Shown here: positions 1,206 through 16,739 of the stretch, piece after piece
Position numbering within the stretch: position 1 is the first letter of the stretch
How the letters are laid out: each line of letters starts with the position of its first letter
Source of the DNA: a virus
DNA length: 28,444 bases
Virus record (IMG/VR): IMGVR_UViG_3300021139_000100
Coordinates: 1 to 28,444 of that record
Reading direction: 5' to 3' (one strand)
Position numbers and translations under genes: made by a program
Notes under the pieces: model-generated
The model's database searches: none
What the model was told of the DNA's origin: nothing
Seen by the model: only the letters and a program-made list of their open reading frames with translations

Positions 1206-1235
1206 TATTTTCCTCTCGCTGTTTGCTTGGGTACC

Positions 1236-1264
1236 ACTGTACACCATGCCAAAGCAAAAGTCAA
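1236..1264 (-). promoter_or_regulatory. Sigma70-like promoter for the leftmost operon
   Basis: On the minus strand, TTGACT (1259-1264), a 17-bp spacer and TACAGT (1236-1241). A leader of about 25-30 bases with GAGAGG precedes ATG 1205. Confidence 0.75.
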
Positions 1265-2451: not shown

Positions 2452-2928
2452 ATGCAAACAAACGAAAAAACACCTGACCTACTAGACGCAGAGAAAGATC
2501 AGTGGGATCTCACCCTCTACGTCAAGCGAGGTTATTCCTGGGAAAAGGCCGTCAGCATTTACAACGGGGAGGCCACTGCGGCCGAGGCGTACGAGACGTT
2601 CGGAAGTCTTGCCGGCAGCGCCCTTCCGCCATGGGCGGCCGTAGTCCACTCACGGGACGAGGGGGTCGGGGACTACGAGTTGAGACTGAGTAGTGGTAGC
2701 CGGAAGAGGCTTATGGCCTCCGCAACATGGCCCGCAGACGTCGTGAGTTATTGCGTTGAAGACCTTGCCTCACTGGCGTCTAAGACCTTTTTGCTCGAAG
2801 TGTCCGTCGACGCCCCCATGGAAATGTTGGAGTCGATAGAAAATGCAGAAGAAGTAGATTGGTTGGAGTTAATGGAAACGGGAGCGCTAGAAGTTCTCTC
2901 AGCGAAGGAGAAGGTAAATGAAAACTAA
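2452..2928 (+). CDS. Unknown phage protein (158 aa), leaderless start
   Basis: The frame begins at ATG 2452, six bases downstream of the -10 element, and ends 11 bases inside the next gene. The protein is acidic. Around residues 18-50 it reads W-D-L-T-L-Y-V-K-R-G-Y-S-W-E-K-A-V-S-I-Y, followed by helices and a long acidic C-terminus (EMLESIENAEEVDWLELMET). No conserved domain is recognisable to me. Being first in a two-gene early-type operon next to a DNA-binding-like protein suggests a regulatory or accessory function. That is only inference from position. Confidence 0.75.
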   Translation: MQTNEKTPDLLDAEKDQWDLTLYVKRGYSWEKAVSIYNGEATAAEAYETFGSLAGSALPPWAAVVHSRDEGVGDYELRLSSGSRKRLMASATWPADVVSYCVEDLASLASKTFLLEVSVDAPMEMLESIENAEEVDWLELMETGALEVLSAKEKVNEN

Positions 2929-3364
2929 CAAAGGACCATGGGCTCCCGAAGAGGTGGCCAAGAGAATGGAAGAGTCGGAGGCTTACCGAGCAAATGCCAT
3001 CGCTGCTGTAGCGGCGCGGGAAGGGCGAAGCCAGTCGGAGACAATTGCCATCATGGTTTCCATGAGCGTTGCCGACAGTCTTATCGCAGATGTCGTCGGC
3101 GAAGGCCCCTCCATGGAGTTCAAGCCACGAGTCAGTAAGGAGAGGGTCCTGTCGGAATGGATATCTTCCAACTCCGGACGAGAGATCACCGCACCCGTTC
3201 TGGCGGAGGAAATCGGTGTTTCGGTTTCCACTGCAACCGCGCGCATCAAGGATGCCCCGACGTGTTTCAAGTGGGTTCGCCGGGGCGTTTATTTAGTCAA
3301 TGATGCCGTCGCGGAGCGCAAGGCGGCGCTGGAGGAAGCGCGGGCGGCTAAGTCAAAGGCTTGA
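2918..3364 (+). CDS. Winged-helix-like DNA-binding protein (148 aa)
   Basis: ATG 2918 follows GGAGAAGG by 4 bases, within the end of the upstream gene. The N-terminal third (EEVAKRMEESEAYRANAIAA) is helical. Residues about 72-125 have the look of a winged helix-turn-helix: K-E-R-V-L-S-E-W-I, then I-T-A-P-V-L-A-E-E-I-G-V-S-V-S-T-A-T-A-R-I-K-D, then a wing ending W-V-R-R-G-V-Y-L-V. The C-terminus is a basic Ala/Lys tail. I infer a phage transcription regulator or DNA-binding accessory protein; no target is known. Its stop codon (3362-3364) lies inside the -35 of the promoter of the downstream RNA gene, so reading through the gene could affect that promoter. Confidence 0.65.
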   Translation: MKTNKGPWAPEEVAKRMEESEAYRANAIAAVAAREGRSQSETIAIMVSMSVADSLIADVVGEGPSMEFKPRVSKERVLSEWISSNSGREITAPVLAEEIGVSVSTATARIKDAPTCFKWVRRGVYLVNDAVAERKAALEEARAAKSKA

Positions 3365-3390
3365 CACTGCGTTGTGTACTGGTGTACAGT
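3361..3390 (+). promoter_or_regulatory. Sigma70-like promoter of a non-coding RNA
   Basis: TTGACA (3361-3366), an 18-bp spacer and TACAGT (3385-3390). The -10 matches the promoters at 1236 and 13487. No gene follows it, only a structured region and a terminator. Confidence 0.8.
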
Positions 3391-3396
3391 TCACAC

Positions 3397-3513
3397 AGGT
3401 TAAGTCACGCCGTTTCGCATCCGGTAGTGACGGCTGTACGGGCCTCTCGCCTCGCTTTTCCGTACAGCCCCAGGGGGGCGTGTTGATTGGAACGGTCAGC
3501 ACGCCCCCTTTTT
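3397..3513 (+). ncRNA. Predicted structured small RNA, about 117 nt
   Basis: A consensus promoter (3361-3390) is followed by no convincing ORF; the longest small frame is a 19-codon GTG frame without a ribosome binding site. The region can fold into three stems: GTCAC/GTGAC (3404-3408 with 3427-3431), a perfect 10-bp stem (3432-3441 with 3460-3469, loop 18 nt), and a terminator stem (3474-3482 with 3500-3508) followed by five T. The 5' end is placed about 7 bases after the -10. This has the architecture of a phage-encoded small RNA. It is not 6S RNA, tRNA or tmRNA as far as I can tell. It lies in antisense orientation to any read-through from the terminase-side operon. Confidence 0.6.
3474..3513 (+). 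terminator. Rho-independent terminator of the small RNA
   Basis: A perfect 9-bp GC-rich stem (GGGGGCGTG / CACGCCCCC; loop 17 nt) is followed directly by TTTTT at 3509-3513. The T tract is only on the plus-strand side, so it serves plus-strand transcripts. Confidence 0.85.
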
Positions 3514-3517
3514 ACGT

Positions 3518-4237
3518 CTATTCCACCAACTCTGCTTCCTGTATATCTTCTAATTCAAGATTGTCAAGCGACCACGTTGGGGACAAATTAGGTCCCATCT
3601 CGCTCATTTTAAAGGCAAAAGTGTTGCGTGCGAGATCAATCTGCGCTTCAGACAATTTCATCTTGGGGTCCAGGATGATGCTGTAGAAGGCTGCGCCGAT
3701 CAACTGGGCCTGGTGTTCCTCCAATTCGACCACACGCTTCTTGAGGTCGTGTTTCATCATAAACTCCAGAACGCGCTGTAGGCGGTCCCAGGCTCTTTCA
3801 AGCATCTCCACCACGGCTCGAGCGTGCTCGACGCCAGCCTGGTCTTCAAGGTAGAAGTCGTTGAGTTCAGCGACTCGTTCTTCCAGGATCAAAGACCACT
3901 GCTGCATCTTGCTCGCCAACTTAAAGGCCTCAAGTTCCGGCGGCCCTAGCGGCTCCGGCTCGCCAAGGCGGTTGGCCACGGTCGCCAGTTCCTTGGTGAC
4001 CACCTTCTGAATGGCGCCTTTAGAGTGTTTTTTGGTTGCGCCCAGGTGCCACTTGCACGTTCCCTCGCCCAAATGCTGGGTACCCATGCCGGCTTTCTTG
4101 GTGCAGTAACGCGTCATCCCCAATTCTTTGAGGCCGCTGTTCCGGAGTTTAGCGCCGCACTTGCCGTCAACGGGTTGGGCGCTTCCTGGAATCTTTTCGT
4201 CGGGGAAGTGCTGCTTCCAGAGTTCTTCTTCGGTCAC
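3518..4237 (-). CDS. Probable terminase small subunit
   Basis: I choose GTG 4237, which shares a base with the stop of the WhiB-like gene (TAGTG); a TTG extension to 4318 is possible. The N-terminal region has a Cys/His cluster typical of actinobacteriophage small terminases: C-G-A-K-L-R-N near 27, R-Y-C-T-K-K-A-G-M-G-T-Q-H near 43-55, and G-T-C-K-W-H-L-G. A long helical region follows (residues about 100-190), then D-L-A-R-N-T-F-A-F near the end. In the family it recognises phage DNA and brings it to the large subunit. The large subunit is not in the window. The call rests on resemblance to that arrangement; a generic zinc-containing DNA-binding protein is the alternative. It is the last gene of the rtcB operon, facing the small RNA terminator. 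Confidence 0.6.
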   Translation of the reverse strand: MTEEELWKQHFPDEKIPGSAQPVDGKCGAKLRNSGLKELGMTRYCTKKAGMGTQHLGEGTCKWHLGATKKHSKGAIQKVVTKELATVANRLGEPEPLGPPELEAFKLASKMQQWSLILEERVAELNDFYLEDQAGVEHARAVVEMLERAWDRLQRVLEFMMKHDLKKRVVELEEHQAQLIGAAFYSIILDPKMKLSEAQIDLARNTFAFKMSEMGPNLSPTWSLDNLELEDIQEAELVE

Positions 4238-4644
4238 TAGGCTGCCATAGCCCTTTCTCTTGCCGCTTCCCTTAATTCGGCGGATCTTTCTGCGTTGGTT
4301 TTTTTGCAAGCGGCGCAATGCTCCATGCCGTAGTAAGTTTCTGCTCGGTAGCCTTCAATTTTGCCGTGAAGGATTACTGGGTTCTCTTTGCGTTTGCGGT
4401 CCATGGGCTCGTTTCGTCTCTTGTTGACGATAATTTTTCTGTTCTTGCGGGCGTTGGCGAGTTCTTCCTCGCTCTTCCCACCCCAAATTCCGTACTCCTC
4501 GTTTTGGATTCCGTGCTCTTCACACTCTTCTCGAATCGGACAGGCGTTGCATAGGTTCAGGATTTCGTCAGTTAAAACCCCAAAAAAATCAAGATCCCCG
4601 TGCCTCCCCAAACATAAGCCCAAAGAGTTATCAAACAATTTCAA
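4237..4644 (-). CDS. WhiB-family iron-sulfur regulator with C-terminal extension
   Basis: Four cysteines in WhiB order: G-L-C-L-G-R-H-G-D-L-D-F-F, then L-C-N-A-C-P-I-R-E-E-C (C-x2-C-x5-C), followed by the turn G-I-W-G-G-K. WhiB proteins bind a 4Fe-4S cluster and contact the host sigma factor. Unusually, a basic stretch (ARKNRKIIVNKRRN) and a further C-x2-C (M-E-H-C-A-A-C-K-K) extend the C-terminus to about 135 residues. No ATG exists near the N-terminus. I take TTG 4644, which has GGGGG about 5 bases upstream, but the frame stays open to a TTG at 4722, which would put a hydrophobic leader in front. A 7-bp inverted repeat (4636-4642 / 4661-4667) brackets this start region. Downstream of rtcB and overlapping the probable terminase gene. 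Confidence 0.75.
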   Translation of the reverse strand: MKLFDNSLGLCLGRHGDLDFFGVLTDEILNLCNACPIREECEEHGIQNEEYGIWGGKSEEELANARKNRKIIVNKRRNEPMDRKRKENPVILHGKIEGYRAETYYGMEHCAACKKTNAERSAELREAARERAMAA

Positions 4645-4739: not shown

Positions 4740-5897
4740 TCAAACTCCCTTGTAGTTTAAAATTTGGTGAAGGGTGTGTACGATTTTGGCCAGATCGGTT
4801 TGGTTTGCCATCACCTGGTCGATATTTTTGTAAGCCCCCGGGTGTTCGTCGAGAAGTTTGACTGCGTCGTCCTTGTTCCAAGAGGTGGACCCCATGGCAC
4901 CGCGCAAATCGTCGACTGAGAACGTTGAGCGTGCCTTGTTACGACTTATGCGGCGCCCAGCGCCGTGCGAACAGGAGTTATACGAGGACGGGTTGCCCAA
5001 GCCTTTGGTGATGTAAGAGGCGGCCCCCATCGATCCCGGGATGACCCCCTTGTCCCCGGCGGCGGCCTTGATGGCGCCCTTGCGAGTAACCCACACGTTC
5101 TTTCCGTGATGGTGCTCGAGTTGGGCAAAATTGTGATGGCAATTTACTGAGTCCATCACCTTGACGGGATAGCCCATAAACCGATTGACGGCCTTGATGG
5201 CTGCTGACATCATGACTGAGCGGTTGGCAAAAGCGTACGCTTGGCCCCACAATAGGTCATCGATGTAGTTCTTGAATGCCGGGTCGCACTCGGGAATGTA
5301 GGCAAGATCTGGGTTAGGCGTTGTAATGAGCCAGTCCTTCATGAGGCCCTTGGCTTTTTCAATGTGCATCTTGGCCAACTGGTTGCCGATGCCGCGCGAA
5401 CCGGAATGCAACACAATCCAAACTCGGTCCTTTTCATCAAGACACACCTCGACGAAGTGATTTCCAGACCCTAGGGTGCCCATTTGTGTGCGCGCGGTTT
5501 TTTCTTGCTTGTGCGTAAGTTCTGCGTGCGCGTACAGAGGAACCGAAGACGCGTTGTTTGCCTGATCGAAGCCCTTGCCAACCCCCGAAGGAATGGCAGC
5601 CGAAATGAGGGAGTGCAAAGCATCGAGGTTGTCGGGTAGATCAGCAGAGGTCAACTTGAGCCTGACTGCGACCATGCCGCAGCCCACATCGACTCCGACG
5701 GCCGCCGGTAAAATGGCGCCCTGGGTGGCGACAACGGACCCGACCGTAGCGCCAAGGCCAAAATGGGCGTCGGGCATCAGGGCGATTGGCTTCACAACAA
5801 ATGGCATAGACGCCGTTTCGATGGCCTGCTGGCGAGCCTCCGGCTCCAAGTCGCTGGCCCAACTAAGGACGTCGCTGAACGATTCAATAACTGGCAT
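4740..5897 (-). CDS. rtcB: RtcB-type RNA-splicing ligase
   Basis: RtcB joins 3'-phosphate or 2',3'-cyclic phosphate RNA ends to 5'-OH ends using GTP and Mn. At 385 residues it is slightly shorter than the bacterial enzyme. All signature blocks are present in order: M-P-D-A-H-F-G-L-G (41-49), G-V-D-V-G-C-G with the metal Cys near 73, G-S-G-N-H-F (143-148), L-H-S-G-S-R-G-I-G (163-171), N-C-H-H-N (252-256), and C-S-H-G-A-G-R with the guanylylated His near 311. ATG 5897 follows GAAGGAAG and a promoter at 5922-5950. A phage role could be repair of tRNAs cut by host anticodon nucleases, but this is inference; no tRNA is seen here. It heads the operon with the WhiB-like and terminase-like genes. Confidence 0.95.
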   Translation of the reverse strand: MPVIESFSDVLSWASDLEPEARQQAIETASMPFVVKPIALMPDAHFGLGATVGSVVATQGAILPAAVGVDVGCGMVAVRLKLTSADLPDNLDALHSLISAAIPSGVGKGFDQANNASSVPLYAHAELTHKQEKTARTQMGTLGSGNHFVEVCLDEKDRVWIVLHSGSRGIGNQLAKMHIEKAKGLMKDWLITTPNPDLAYIPECDPAFKNYIDDLLWGQAYAFANRSVMMSAAIKAVNRFMGYPVKVMDSVNCHHNFAQLEHHHGKNVWVTRKGAIKAAAGDKGVIPGSMGAASYITKGLGNPSSYNSCSHGAGRRISRNKARSTFSVDDLRGAMGSTSWNKDDAVKLLDEHPGAYKNIDQVMANQTDLAKIVHTLHQILNYKGV

Positions 5898-15097: not shown

Positions 15098-15499
15098 ATG
15101 ACCGTAGAAAACGGCGAACCACTCAGTTATCACCATGTGGAAAACGCCATGCGCGCTTCTATCAACTGGGTAAGGGAATACACCCGCCAATTCAGTGAAG
15201 CCTGCGACGCCTATGCCGAAGCAAACGCCGATTATGAAGTTGGATTTGCTTCGACTAGGCTGCGCGTCAAGGCTTACGGGTACGCCACCGTCGATCCCTC
15301 GACCGGGGAAGAAAAGTTCTTCCCAAAGCCCAGCGACGACATGGCTAAAGACGTTGCCATCACAGAAAACAAGGAACTCCTGAGAGCCTCACTTGTTAAA
15401 AAGGCGGTGCTTGACGCAGCGCGCCAAAGGATGCTCTCAGAACGAGAAAAACTCGAAGGGCTTAGAAGCCTCATGTCATCCTACAGGGGGATAGAGTAA
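15098..15499 (+). CDS. Helical protein of unknown function (133 aa)
   Basis: The frame starts at ATG 15098 with a weak ribosome binding site, and its stop shares a base with the next start (TAATG). The first half is helical (W-V-R-E-Y-T-R-Q-F-S-E-A-C-D-A-Y-A-E-A-N). A short beta-like insert follows (K-A-Y-G-Y-A-T-V-D-P-S-T-G-E-E), then a second long helix rich in Lys, Arg and Leu. This helix-insert-helix layout is common in uncharacterised actinobacteriophage proteins next to recombination genes. The function is unknown. Confidence 0.7.
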   Translation: MTVENGEPLSYHHVENAMRASINWVREYTRQFSEACDAYAEANADYEVGFASTRLRVKAYGYATVDPSTGEEKFFPKPSDDMAKDVAITENKELLRASLVKKAVLDAARQRMLSEREKLEGLRSLMSSYRGIE

Positions 15500-15666: not shown

Positions 15667-16055
15667 TGCAGACCCGCAAACCGCTTCGATCCATTACGCC
15701 GTTAAAAGCGGAAAAGGGGCTCCAGACGAATAAATCGCTGAAGCCCCGGTCGAAGCGTACGGATAGGTTGTACAGGACTAAGAGAATCCCGTTTGTAAAA
15801 GCACTTTTGGCGGAGTTCCCGCATTGCATGGCGGTGTGGGACGAGACGTGCTTTGGCCTTTCGGTCGACGTCAACGAGATCGTTTCTCGCGGCGCCGGGG
15901 GTGGACTTGTCCCTGAGGATTGGGATGGCCGGACAATCAAATCAGAGTACCTGGAACAGTACATGACAGTTTGTCGGAACTGCCATTCAAACATCACACA
16001 AAATCCGCCGGAAGCGGAAAAAAGAGGATTCAGAAAATGGTATCGCGAAAGGTAG
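15666..16055 (+). CDS. HNH-like phage protein with Asn in place of the catalytic His
   Basis: A 129-residue basic protein. After a Lys/Arg-rich N-terminus come Cys54 and Cys62, then D-V-N-E-I-V-S-R-G-A-G-G-G (68-80) and Y-M-T-V-C-R-N-C-H-S-N-I (99-110). This is the layout of phage HNH proteins whose first motif is usually D-x-H-E-I-x-x-R-G. Here the His is Asn70, while the zinc-binding C-x2-C-H remains. It may therefore be a non-catalytic DNA-binding relative, or use another residue. It overlaps genes on both sides. Confidence 0.6.
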   Translation: MQTRKPLRSITPLKAEKGLQTNKSLKPRSKRTDRLYRTKRIPFVKALLAEFPHCMAVWDETCFGLSVDVNEIVSRGAGGGLVPEDWDGRTIKSEYLEQYMTVCRNCHSNITQNPPEAEKRGFRKWYRER

Positions 16056-16210: not shown

Positions 16211-16514
16211 TTTTACCGAGTACGAAATCCTGGAGTTTGTTCAGGCGCTCCGTGAAAGCCTTCCTGGCTGGTTCACGCGCAAATCCTGCACGCGCGAGGA
16301 CGGACATTTGTTCTTCCCCGAGCGGAATCAGGCCTGGAAAGTGGCAAAGGCCAAGGCGATATGCCGTGAGTGCCCTGTGCGTCGGCAATGTCTCGAATAT
16401 TCGTTCGAAAACGATTTTGAGTTTGGGACCTTCGGCGGGGTTTCCACCAAGGAACGCCAGAAATTCAAGCAAGAGGGCTTGAGCGCCCAAGGGGTTTTTG
16501 ACCTAGGAGAATAG
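16191..16514 (+). CDS. WhiB-family iron-sulfur regulator (second copy)
   Basis: The start is assigned to GTG 16191 with AAAGG about 6 bases upstream; the frame is open further left but there it lies in another gene. Four WhiB cysteines are present: R-K-S-C-T-R-E-D-G-H-L-F-F-P, then A-I-C-R-E-C-P-V-R-R-Q-C (C-x2-C-x5-C). The usual G-(V/I)-W-G-G turn is altered to G-T-F-G-G-V, with Phe for Trp. At about 107 residues it is a compact member, unlike the extended copy at 4237-4644. WhiB proteins act with the primary sigma factor. It could redirect host or late phage transcription, as it closes the recombination operon. It converges with, and overlaps, the minus gene at 16503 by 12 bases. Confidence 0.85.
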   Translation: MPDETFSFTEYEILEFVQALRESLPGWFTRKSCTREDGHLFFPERNQAWKVAKAKAICRECPVRRQCLEYSFENDFEFGTFGGVSTKERQKFKQEGLSAQGVFDLGE

Positions 16515-16739
16515 GGTGGCGGCAGTATTGGGAGCGTTTCTGCGCTCCTTGGCTTTGATGCGGCGCCACTTGTCGGTACCGACGCAGTCTTTGTGGTAGG
16601 GCTCGCCATCTTCCCACAAAACGCAAAGAAGGTCGCAAACACCACACACTGCGTAATCCCAGTGAGGGTACTTTGCGACCATTTGCTCTAGAAGGGATCG
16701 GTTGTACGCTTGGCGTTCACCCTTCGACATTTTTTCCAT
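16503..16739 (-). CDS. Small zinc-binding-like protein (78 aa), leaderless start
   Basis: ATG 16739 lies six bases from the -10 of its promoter; an in-frame ATG at 16730 is an alternative. The middle has V-C-G-V-C-D-L-L-C-V-L-W, then E-P-Y-H-K-D-C-V-G-T-D-K-W. This is a C-x2-C...H-x3-C pattern of a zinc finger, in a basic protein. The function is unknown. It has its own promoter between two operons. Confidence 0.7.
   Translation of the reverse strand: MEKMSKGERQAYNRSLLEQMVAKYPHWDYAVCGVCDLLCVLWEDGEPYHKDCVGTDKWRRIKAKERRNAPNTAATLFS

What the first reader, a model, noticed from the sequence alone, without database searches (positions are those of the whole stretch)
3361..3513. Stand-alone small RNA gene: promoter, hairpins, terminator, no ORF
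Seen: TTGACA-18-TACAGT, then a 10-bp perfect stem (3432-3441/3460-3469), then a 9-bp GC stem with TTTTT. Nothing in between looks like a gene. In this window such a compact unit occurs once, between a DNA-binding-like gene and the end of a convergent operon. A phage-encoded regulatory RNA is the simplest reading; function unknown.
Basis: partly seen in the sequence, partly recalled or inferred. Interest (0 to 1): 0.75.

Follow-up and report, generated by a model that had tools for sequence, protein, structure and literature searches.

The report
New conserved small RNA of phages
A phage from the environment carries a short stand-alone gene for a folded RNA that makes no protein, and distant relatives of the phage keep the same three-hairpin shape at the same place although its letters have changed, so the RNA itself is under selection and belongs to a previously unlisted family whose job is not yet known.

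Summary
It is the most stable fold of 978 windows scanned. The promoter belongs to a class with 13 copies in the window (0.37 expected), most of them just before an ORF.

Related phage contigs carry the element at the same syntenic spot, convergent to a TerS-like gene. A covariance model built WITHOUT the window finds it as best hit in 72 kb (E=1.5e-4). In the model-guided alignment 26 of 34 base pairs have changes on both sides; a purely sequence-based alignment of the closest members also covaries (10 pairs). Shared features: TTGAC[AT]-17/18-TAnnnT, a bulged first hairpin, a mostly pyrimidine-rich second loop, and GGAAC in the third loop. No Rfam family matches.

The family is new and most likely a trans-acting sRNA: several lineages have no gene downstream, and in one near-identical pair a gene is inserted exactly upstream of the promoter. 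Base-pairing to ribosome-binding sites is my preferred mechanism, but support is weak (one of five genomes beyond base composition). Transcription itself is unproven.

The parts
3361..3390 (+). promoter, TTGACA-18-TACAGT (-35 3361-3366, -10 3385-3390); inferred start of transcription about 3397
   Evidence: the relatives with the full three-hairpin RNA and readable upstream DNA have TTGAC[AT]-17/18-TAnnnT at the same place
3375..3388 (+). perfect dyad TGTAC-TGGT-GTACA overlapping the -10; possible operator (unproven). One- and two-mismatch copies overlap the -10 boxes of two other promoters (1264-, 2402-)
   Evidence: (only exact copy; the total number of near matches is as expected by chance)
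3404..3431 (+). hairpin 1: GTCAC-GCCG / CGGT-(A bulge)-GTGAC, loop TTTCGCATC
   Evidence: 8 of 10 pairs with change on both sides
3432..3469 (+). hairpin 2: perfect 10-bp stem, pyrimidine-rich 18-nt loop 3442-3459
3474..3508 (+). hairpin 3: 15-bp stem with GGAAC (3489-3493) in the apical loop; also the terminator stem in this phage
3509..3513 (+). T5 tract completing an intrinsic terminator
2918..3364 (+). upstream gene, winged-helix-like DNA-binding protein (weak match to a phage repressor family, phrog_19097); present next to the RNA in several relatives but not in L020 and L079, so not an obligate partner
3518..4318 (-). convergent gene next door in every member found; weak TerS-like match (phrog_9231)

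Best explanation
The element is a self-contained gene for a roughly 115-nt structured non-coding RNA, a member of an unlisted RNA family of one phage group. RNA polymerase starts at a house-keeping-type promoter (TTGACA-18-TACAGT, start about 3397), makes three adjacent hairpins and stops at the third, which doubles as an intrinsic terminator (about 3513). I infer that it acts in trans, because several lineages have no gene downstream to control. Most likely it works as a base-pairing sRNA that presents a pyrimidine-rich loop (hairpin 2) and the invariant GGAAC loop (hairpin 3) to other RNAs, in the manner of the C-rich-loop 6C/B11 sRNAs of mycobacteria. Directly supported by sequence: promoter, fold, covariation, conserved motif, terminator, absence of an ORF. 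Inferred: transcription, trans action. Weakly supported: pairing to ribosome-binding sites. My split: real conserved ncRNA gene 0.93; trans-acting 0.75; base-pairing antisense mechanism about 0.45.
For: Fold outlier. Model R1, built without the window, finds window 3395-3509 as best hit (31.7 bits, E=1.5e-4) and L008 (E=0.0015). Covariation: MAFFT-only alignment, 10 pairs and 17 cells changed on both sides, slid versions 0-4 cells, 0/500 shuffles for cells; six-member model alignment, 26 of 34 pairs, 48 cells against 13.7 shuffled and at most 5 slid. The structure is independently strong in L079 (z -7.3), L020-type (z -5.3) and L008 (z -6.2). Same synteny across contigs whose main proteins are only about 45-60% identical. 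L009 against L008: an extra ORF sits exactly upstream of the promoter, leaving the unit intact. No A7 gene anywhere in the W, L008-group or L020 contigs, so the RNA is kept without it. In L062 a terminator-like hairpin lies between the RNA and the next gene. Hairpin-2 loop 78-100% pyrimidine in 6 of 7 lineages. Precedent: B11/6C loops bind RBSs (PMC10470900).
Against: No expression data. Complementarity of loop 2 to start regions exceeds composition-matched shuffles only in L058 (p about 0.01), not in W, L008, L020 or L062; similarity of loop 2 to the 16S tail is not beyond composition (Fisher p 0.12). L025's loop 2 is not pyrimidine-rich. An apparent shared target of loop 3 turned out to be Pro-Arg-Ser codons in an HNH gene. 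Some relatives (L002, L006, L013, L117, L040) lack the RNA at this spot, so it is not essential to the group.
Confidence: 0.6

Rival explanations
1. Cis-acting leader or attenuator: the RNA evolved as the 5' leader of the about 107-aa gene (A7) that follows it in L025, L058, L062 and L004, and senses something to control that gene; the window's copy is a leftover leader whose gene was lost.
For: In four lineages the A7 gene follows directly; loop 2 of L058 and L062 is complementary to 7 nt of A7's own ribosome-binding site (AGAAAGG); a terminator-like hairpin between RNA and A7 in L062 would suit an attenuator.
Against: W, L008, L020 and L079 have no A7 gene downstream, and none elsewhere in the W, L008 and L020 contigs, yet keep promoter, three hairpins and GGAAC; A7 exists without the RNA in L002, L006, L013, L040. 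A leftover should decay.
Confidence: 0.15
2. A protein-binding RNA: the invariant GGAAC apical loop on a long stem, and the bulged hairpin 1, are docking sites for a host or phage protein (sponge, RNA-polymerase modifier of the HK022 put kind, or packaging cofactor given the constant TerS-like neighbour).
For: GGAAC is kept in the apical loop of hairpin 3 in all eight lineages examined, although stem sequences have diverged; 1-nt 3' bulge in hairpin 1 in all but L020; the ten contigs of a collection-wide RNA pattern scan not using the TerS-like gene are the ones already known to carry it next door.
Against: No Rfam match to pRNA or any other family; the TerS label itself is weak (E about 5e-4); a put-like antiterminator should not sit directly before terminators. 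Motif conservation alone does not tell protein from RNA partner.
Confidence: 0.2
3. No separate gene: a 3' UTR with a strong terminator for the rightward operon 2452-3364.
For: It lies directly after that operon, and the third hairpin is a good terminator.
Against: Its own promoter is conserved across lineages with different upstream genes (wHTH or zinc ribbon); hairpins 1 and 2 covary and are not needed for termination; L009 has an ORF inserted between operon and promoter; several members carry a separate terminator-like hairpin after hairpin 3.
Confidence: 0.05

Closest known systems
6C / B11 sRNA of mycobacteria (PMC10470900)
   Same: Small, stand-alone sRNA with hairpin loops rich in C (here C and U) able in principle to pair with ribosome-binding sites; both in an actinobacterial setting (host here inferred).
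   Different: B11 has two unstructured loops of cytosines and is chromosomal; here three hairpins, a mixed pyrimidine loop 2 and an invariant purine-rich GGAAC loop 3; no Rfam match; RBS pairing not demonstrated.
Abundant small non-coding RNAs of mycobacteriophages L5/D29/StarStuff (PMC5712189)
   Same: Phage-encoded non-coding transcripts of actinobacteriophages without conserved ORFs, function unknown.
   Different: Those come from the genome's right end (about 500 bp, from Pleft) or the D29 63-64 intergenic region; no similar DNA found in 50,697 phage records; no covariation-based family described for them in the passages read.
Phage antisense RNAs such as c4 (RF01695) and other phage-derived sRNAs reviewed in PMC12197685
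   Same: Phage-encoded, non-coding, presumed antisense regulators.
   Different: No covariance-model match; c4 has a known target (own knowledge), none is known here.

Membership tests
Stand-alone phage small RNA gene (general kind) | own promoter, structured non-coding transcript, terminator | tested here: met
   sequence-level only:
Stand-alone phage small RNA gene (general kind) | demonstrated transcript | not testable with these tools
   no RNA data available
The RNA family defined here (models R1/R2) | window scored by a model built without it | tested here: met
   31.7 bits, E=1.5e-4, best of 72 kb
The RNA family defined here (models R1/R2) | syntenic position and GGAAC apical loop of hairpin 3 | tested here: met
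6C / B11 sRNA | covariance-model match | tested here: not met
   no match at gathering nor at E up to 10 in five loci with the element
6C / B11 sRNA | two loops of cytosines | tested here: not met
   three hairpins, mixed loops
6C / B11 sRNA | loops pair with ribosome-binding sites | tested here: inconclusive
   only L058 beyond composition
phi29-type packaging RNA | Rfam covariance-model match | tested here: not met
cis-regulatory leader of the A7 gene | always upstream of the gene it controls | tested here: not met
   no A7 gene downstream in W, L008, L020, L079; none elsewhere in W, L008, L020 contigs

The most novel reading that the evidence does not exclude
A phage RNA whose invariant GGAAC hairpin (with the bulged first hairpin) docks on a host or phage protein, or on another conserved RNA, as an RNA take-over or packaging-related factor of a kind not yet described, rather than an ordinary antisense sRNA.
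Probability: 0.2. Interest if true: 0.8.

Novelty: new member of a known kind. Interest (0 to 1): 0.6.

Why it matters
Structured RNAs of phages are poorly catalogued, and few families rest on covariation. This one is conserved in shape across phages whose main proteins are about half identical, has its own promoter and a short invariant loop motif, and has no counterpart in Rfam. It gives a concrete, compact object (about 115 nt, three hairpins, one five-letter motif) for expression and pull-down tests in actinobacterial phages.

Tried and rejected
(1) Rfam at gathering threshold and, for five loci, up to E=10: only weak chance matches, none on the element. (2) Cultured phages: no DNA or protein relatives of this region; only the helicase is found, at about 27%. 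(3) Bacterial genomes: no relatives of the neighbour gene. (4) Loop 3 as antisense to an HNH-gene start (CCCCGTTCT, recurring in L020, L058, L062): rejected, the letters are Pro-Arg-Ser codons. (5) Loop 2 as a general anti-Shine-Dalgarno: pyrimidine-rich, but not beyond composition except in L058. (6) Small ORFs: MTY... frames in L008 and L079 look alike only because hairpin 1 is conserved; loops and continuations differ. An ATG frame at the start of L058 has no start codon in L062 and is shifted by an indel. (7) Pseudoknot between a 5' GUU(C) and GGAAC: possible in several members but invariant, hence no covariation, and absent in L020 and L079. (8) DNA-level hairpin (origin or packaging site): not tested directly; G-U pairs in the stems and the upstream promoter favour RNA. 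(9) A shared operator dyad at the -10: near-matches no more frequent than chance. (10) A first fold scan timed out and was repeated.

Full report
WHAT IS THERE. Every letter-level claim of the finding holds: TTGACA (3361-3366), 18 nt, TACAGT (3385-3390), a perfect 10-bp stem (3432-3441/3460-3469) and a GC-rich stem with T5 (3509-3513). Energy is -60.5 kcal/mol, z = -5.8 against dinucleotide shuffles; in a scan of 978 windows on both strands nothing else folds as well by energy or z.

THE PROMOTER IS ONE OF A REAL CLASS. TTGAC[AT]-17/18-TAnnnT occurs 13 times in the window against 0.37 in shuffles. Most copies stand 6-30 nt before an ORF start, several so close that the mRNA must be leaderless. 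With the WhiB-like and Rpf/transglycosylase-like genes this points to an actinobacterial host (inference). The copy at 3361 is followed by the structured stretch and no plausible ORF, and the next genes to the right are on the other strand. Two other copies (6489-, 24801+) also lack an ORF of 60 codons or more nearby; the latter lies inside a gene.

RELATIVES. The window is an IMG/VR fragment. Cultured phages hold no relative of this region. Using the convergent TerS-like neighbour (phrog_9231 match weak), the upstream winged-helix-like gene and the A7 gene (an about 107-aa gene of unknown function) as baits, IMG/VR gave about twenty distinct related contigs. Those examined share genes and order with the window (helicase, DnaD-like, DnaB-like, Rpf-like, TerS-like, then this spot) at about 45-60% protein identity for the main genes. 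At the same spot, on the strand convergent to the TerS-like gene, eight lineages (W, L008, L020, L025/L024, L058/L056, L062, L079, and reduced in L004) have a hairpin series with GGAAC in the apical loop of the last hairpin; all but L004 have the full three hairpins and, where readable, a TTGAC[AT]-17/18-TAnnnT promoter (L024's contig starts at the RNA). L018 has only a GGAAC hairpin. L002, L006, L013, L040 and L117 have none there; L026 and L070 have other or degenerate leaders.

BLIND TEST AND COVARIATION. Model R1 was built from six sequences of the L025/L058/L062 subfamily only. Searched with filters off over 72 kb, its best hit is window 3395-3509 (31.7 bits, E=1.5e-4) and the second is L008 (E=0.0015); weaker hits in L070, L096 (=L004), L105 (=L018), L079 and L111 (=L020) fall on the same spot. 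On the purely sequence-based alignment A10, 10 of 34 pairs change on both sides, 17 cells against 6.8 in shuffles and 0-4 when partners are slid. On the model-guided alignment A17 with the window and L008, 26 of 34 pairs change on both sides, score 0.76 against 0.28 shuffled and at most 0.17 slid; that alignment leans towards the structure by construction, which is why A10 and the blind hit matter. Model R2 then finds L079 at E=0.037 and L004 at E=0.12; these two and L020 rest on synteny, fold strength (z -7.3 for L079, -5.3 for the L020 type) and the GGAAC motif more than on the model score, since some opposite-strand matches score similarly. A hand-made structural alignment of nine sequences agrees but was built to do so and is not counted as evidence.

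IT IS A SEPARABLE UNIT. L008 and L009 are otherwise the same here, but L009 carries an extra ORF between the winged-helix gene and the promoter, joining exactly before CCAGACTAAATGCTTGACA. In L020 and L079 the upstream gene is a zinc-ribbon protein instead of the winged-helix one. In L025, L058, L062 and L004 the A7 gene follows; in L062 a terminator-like hairpin with T5 lies between. In W, L008, L020 and L079 no A7 gene follows, and none is found in the W, L008-group and L020 contigs, which are however fragments. RNA, upstream gene and A7 are thus separate modules.

HOW IT PROBABLY WORKS. Trans action follows from the absence of a downstream gene in four lineages (inference). Loop 2 is 78-100% pyrimidine in six of seven lineages, as expected of sRNAs that pair with purine-rich ribosome-binding sites; B11/6C of mycobacteria does this with C-rich loops (PMC10470900). 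Tests of such pairing here were mostly negative beyond composition: only L058 exceeds shuffled loops, and resemblance to the 16S tail is not significant. In W one of the two best cases is 8 nt (CCUCUCGC) against the start region of the gene at 1205-, and W as a whole does not exceed shuffles. The invariant GGAAC has no partner identified; the one recurring match was coding sequence. Base-pairing is therefore the preferred but unproven mechanism, protein docking the main rival.

VERDICT. A real, conserved, unlisted structured RNA gene of a phage group; ordinary in kind (phage sRNA), new as a family; function open. 'No match in Rfam' and 'not found in the papers searched' do not exclude a description elsewhere.

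Noticed in passing
window, e.g. 2416+, 10886-, 7793-, 16774-, 729-: Thirteen TTGAC[AT]-17/18-TAnnnT promoters (0.37 expected); at several the ATG lies 6-7 nt after the -10, so the phage probably makes leaderless mRNAs.
   Followed up: partly
L009 4915-5331 (reverse strand) compared with L008: Near-identical contigs differ by a cleanly inserted ORF (cysteine-rich small protein) just before the RNA's promoter: a recent gene gain or loss at the RNA boundary.
   Followed up: partly
window about 15676-16055 (+), and HNH genes in L020, L058, L062 contigs: A hairpin near the start of an HNH-type gene (AAGGGGCT...AGCCCC) recurs in four phages; it lies in coding sequence (Lys-Gly-Leu...Pro-Arg-Ser) but also gives one of the strongest folds of the window.
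   Followed up: no
window 15371-15487 (+) and 16438-16554 (-): Further windows with fold z near -6; not examined further.
   Followed up: no
window 4740-5897 (-): RtcB RNA ligase gene in the window, not found in the related contigs examined.
   Followed up: partly
window 1230-1243 and 2371-2384: Near copies of the dyad TGTAC-N4-GTACA overlap the -10 boxes of two other promoters, as at 3375-3388; number of copies not above chance.
   Followed up: partly
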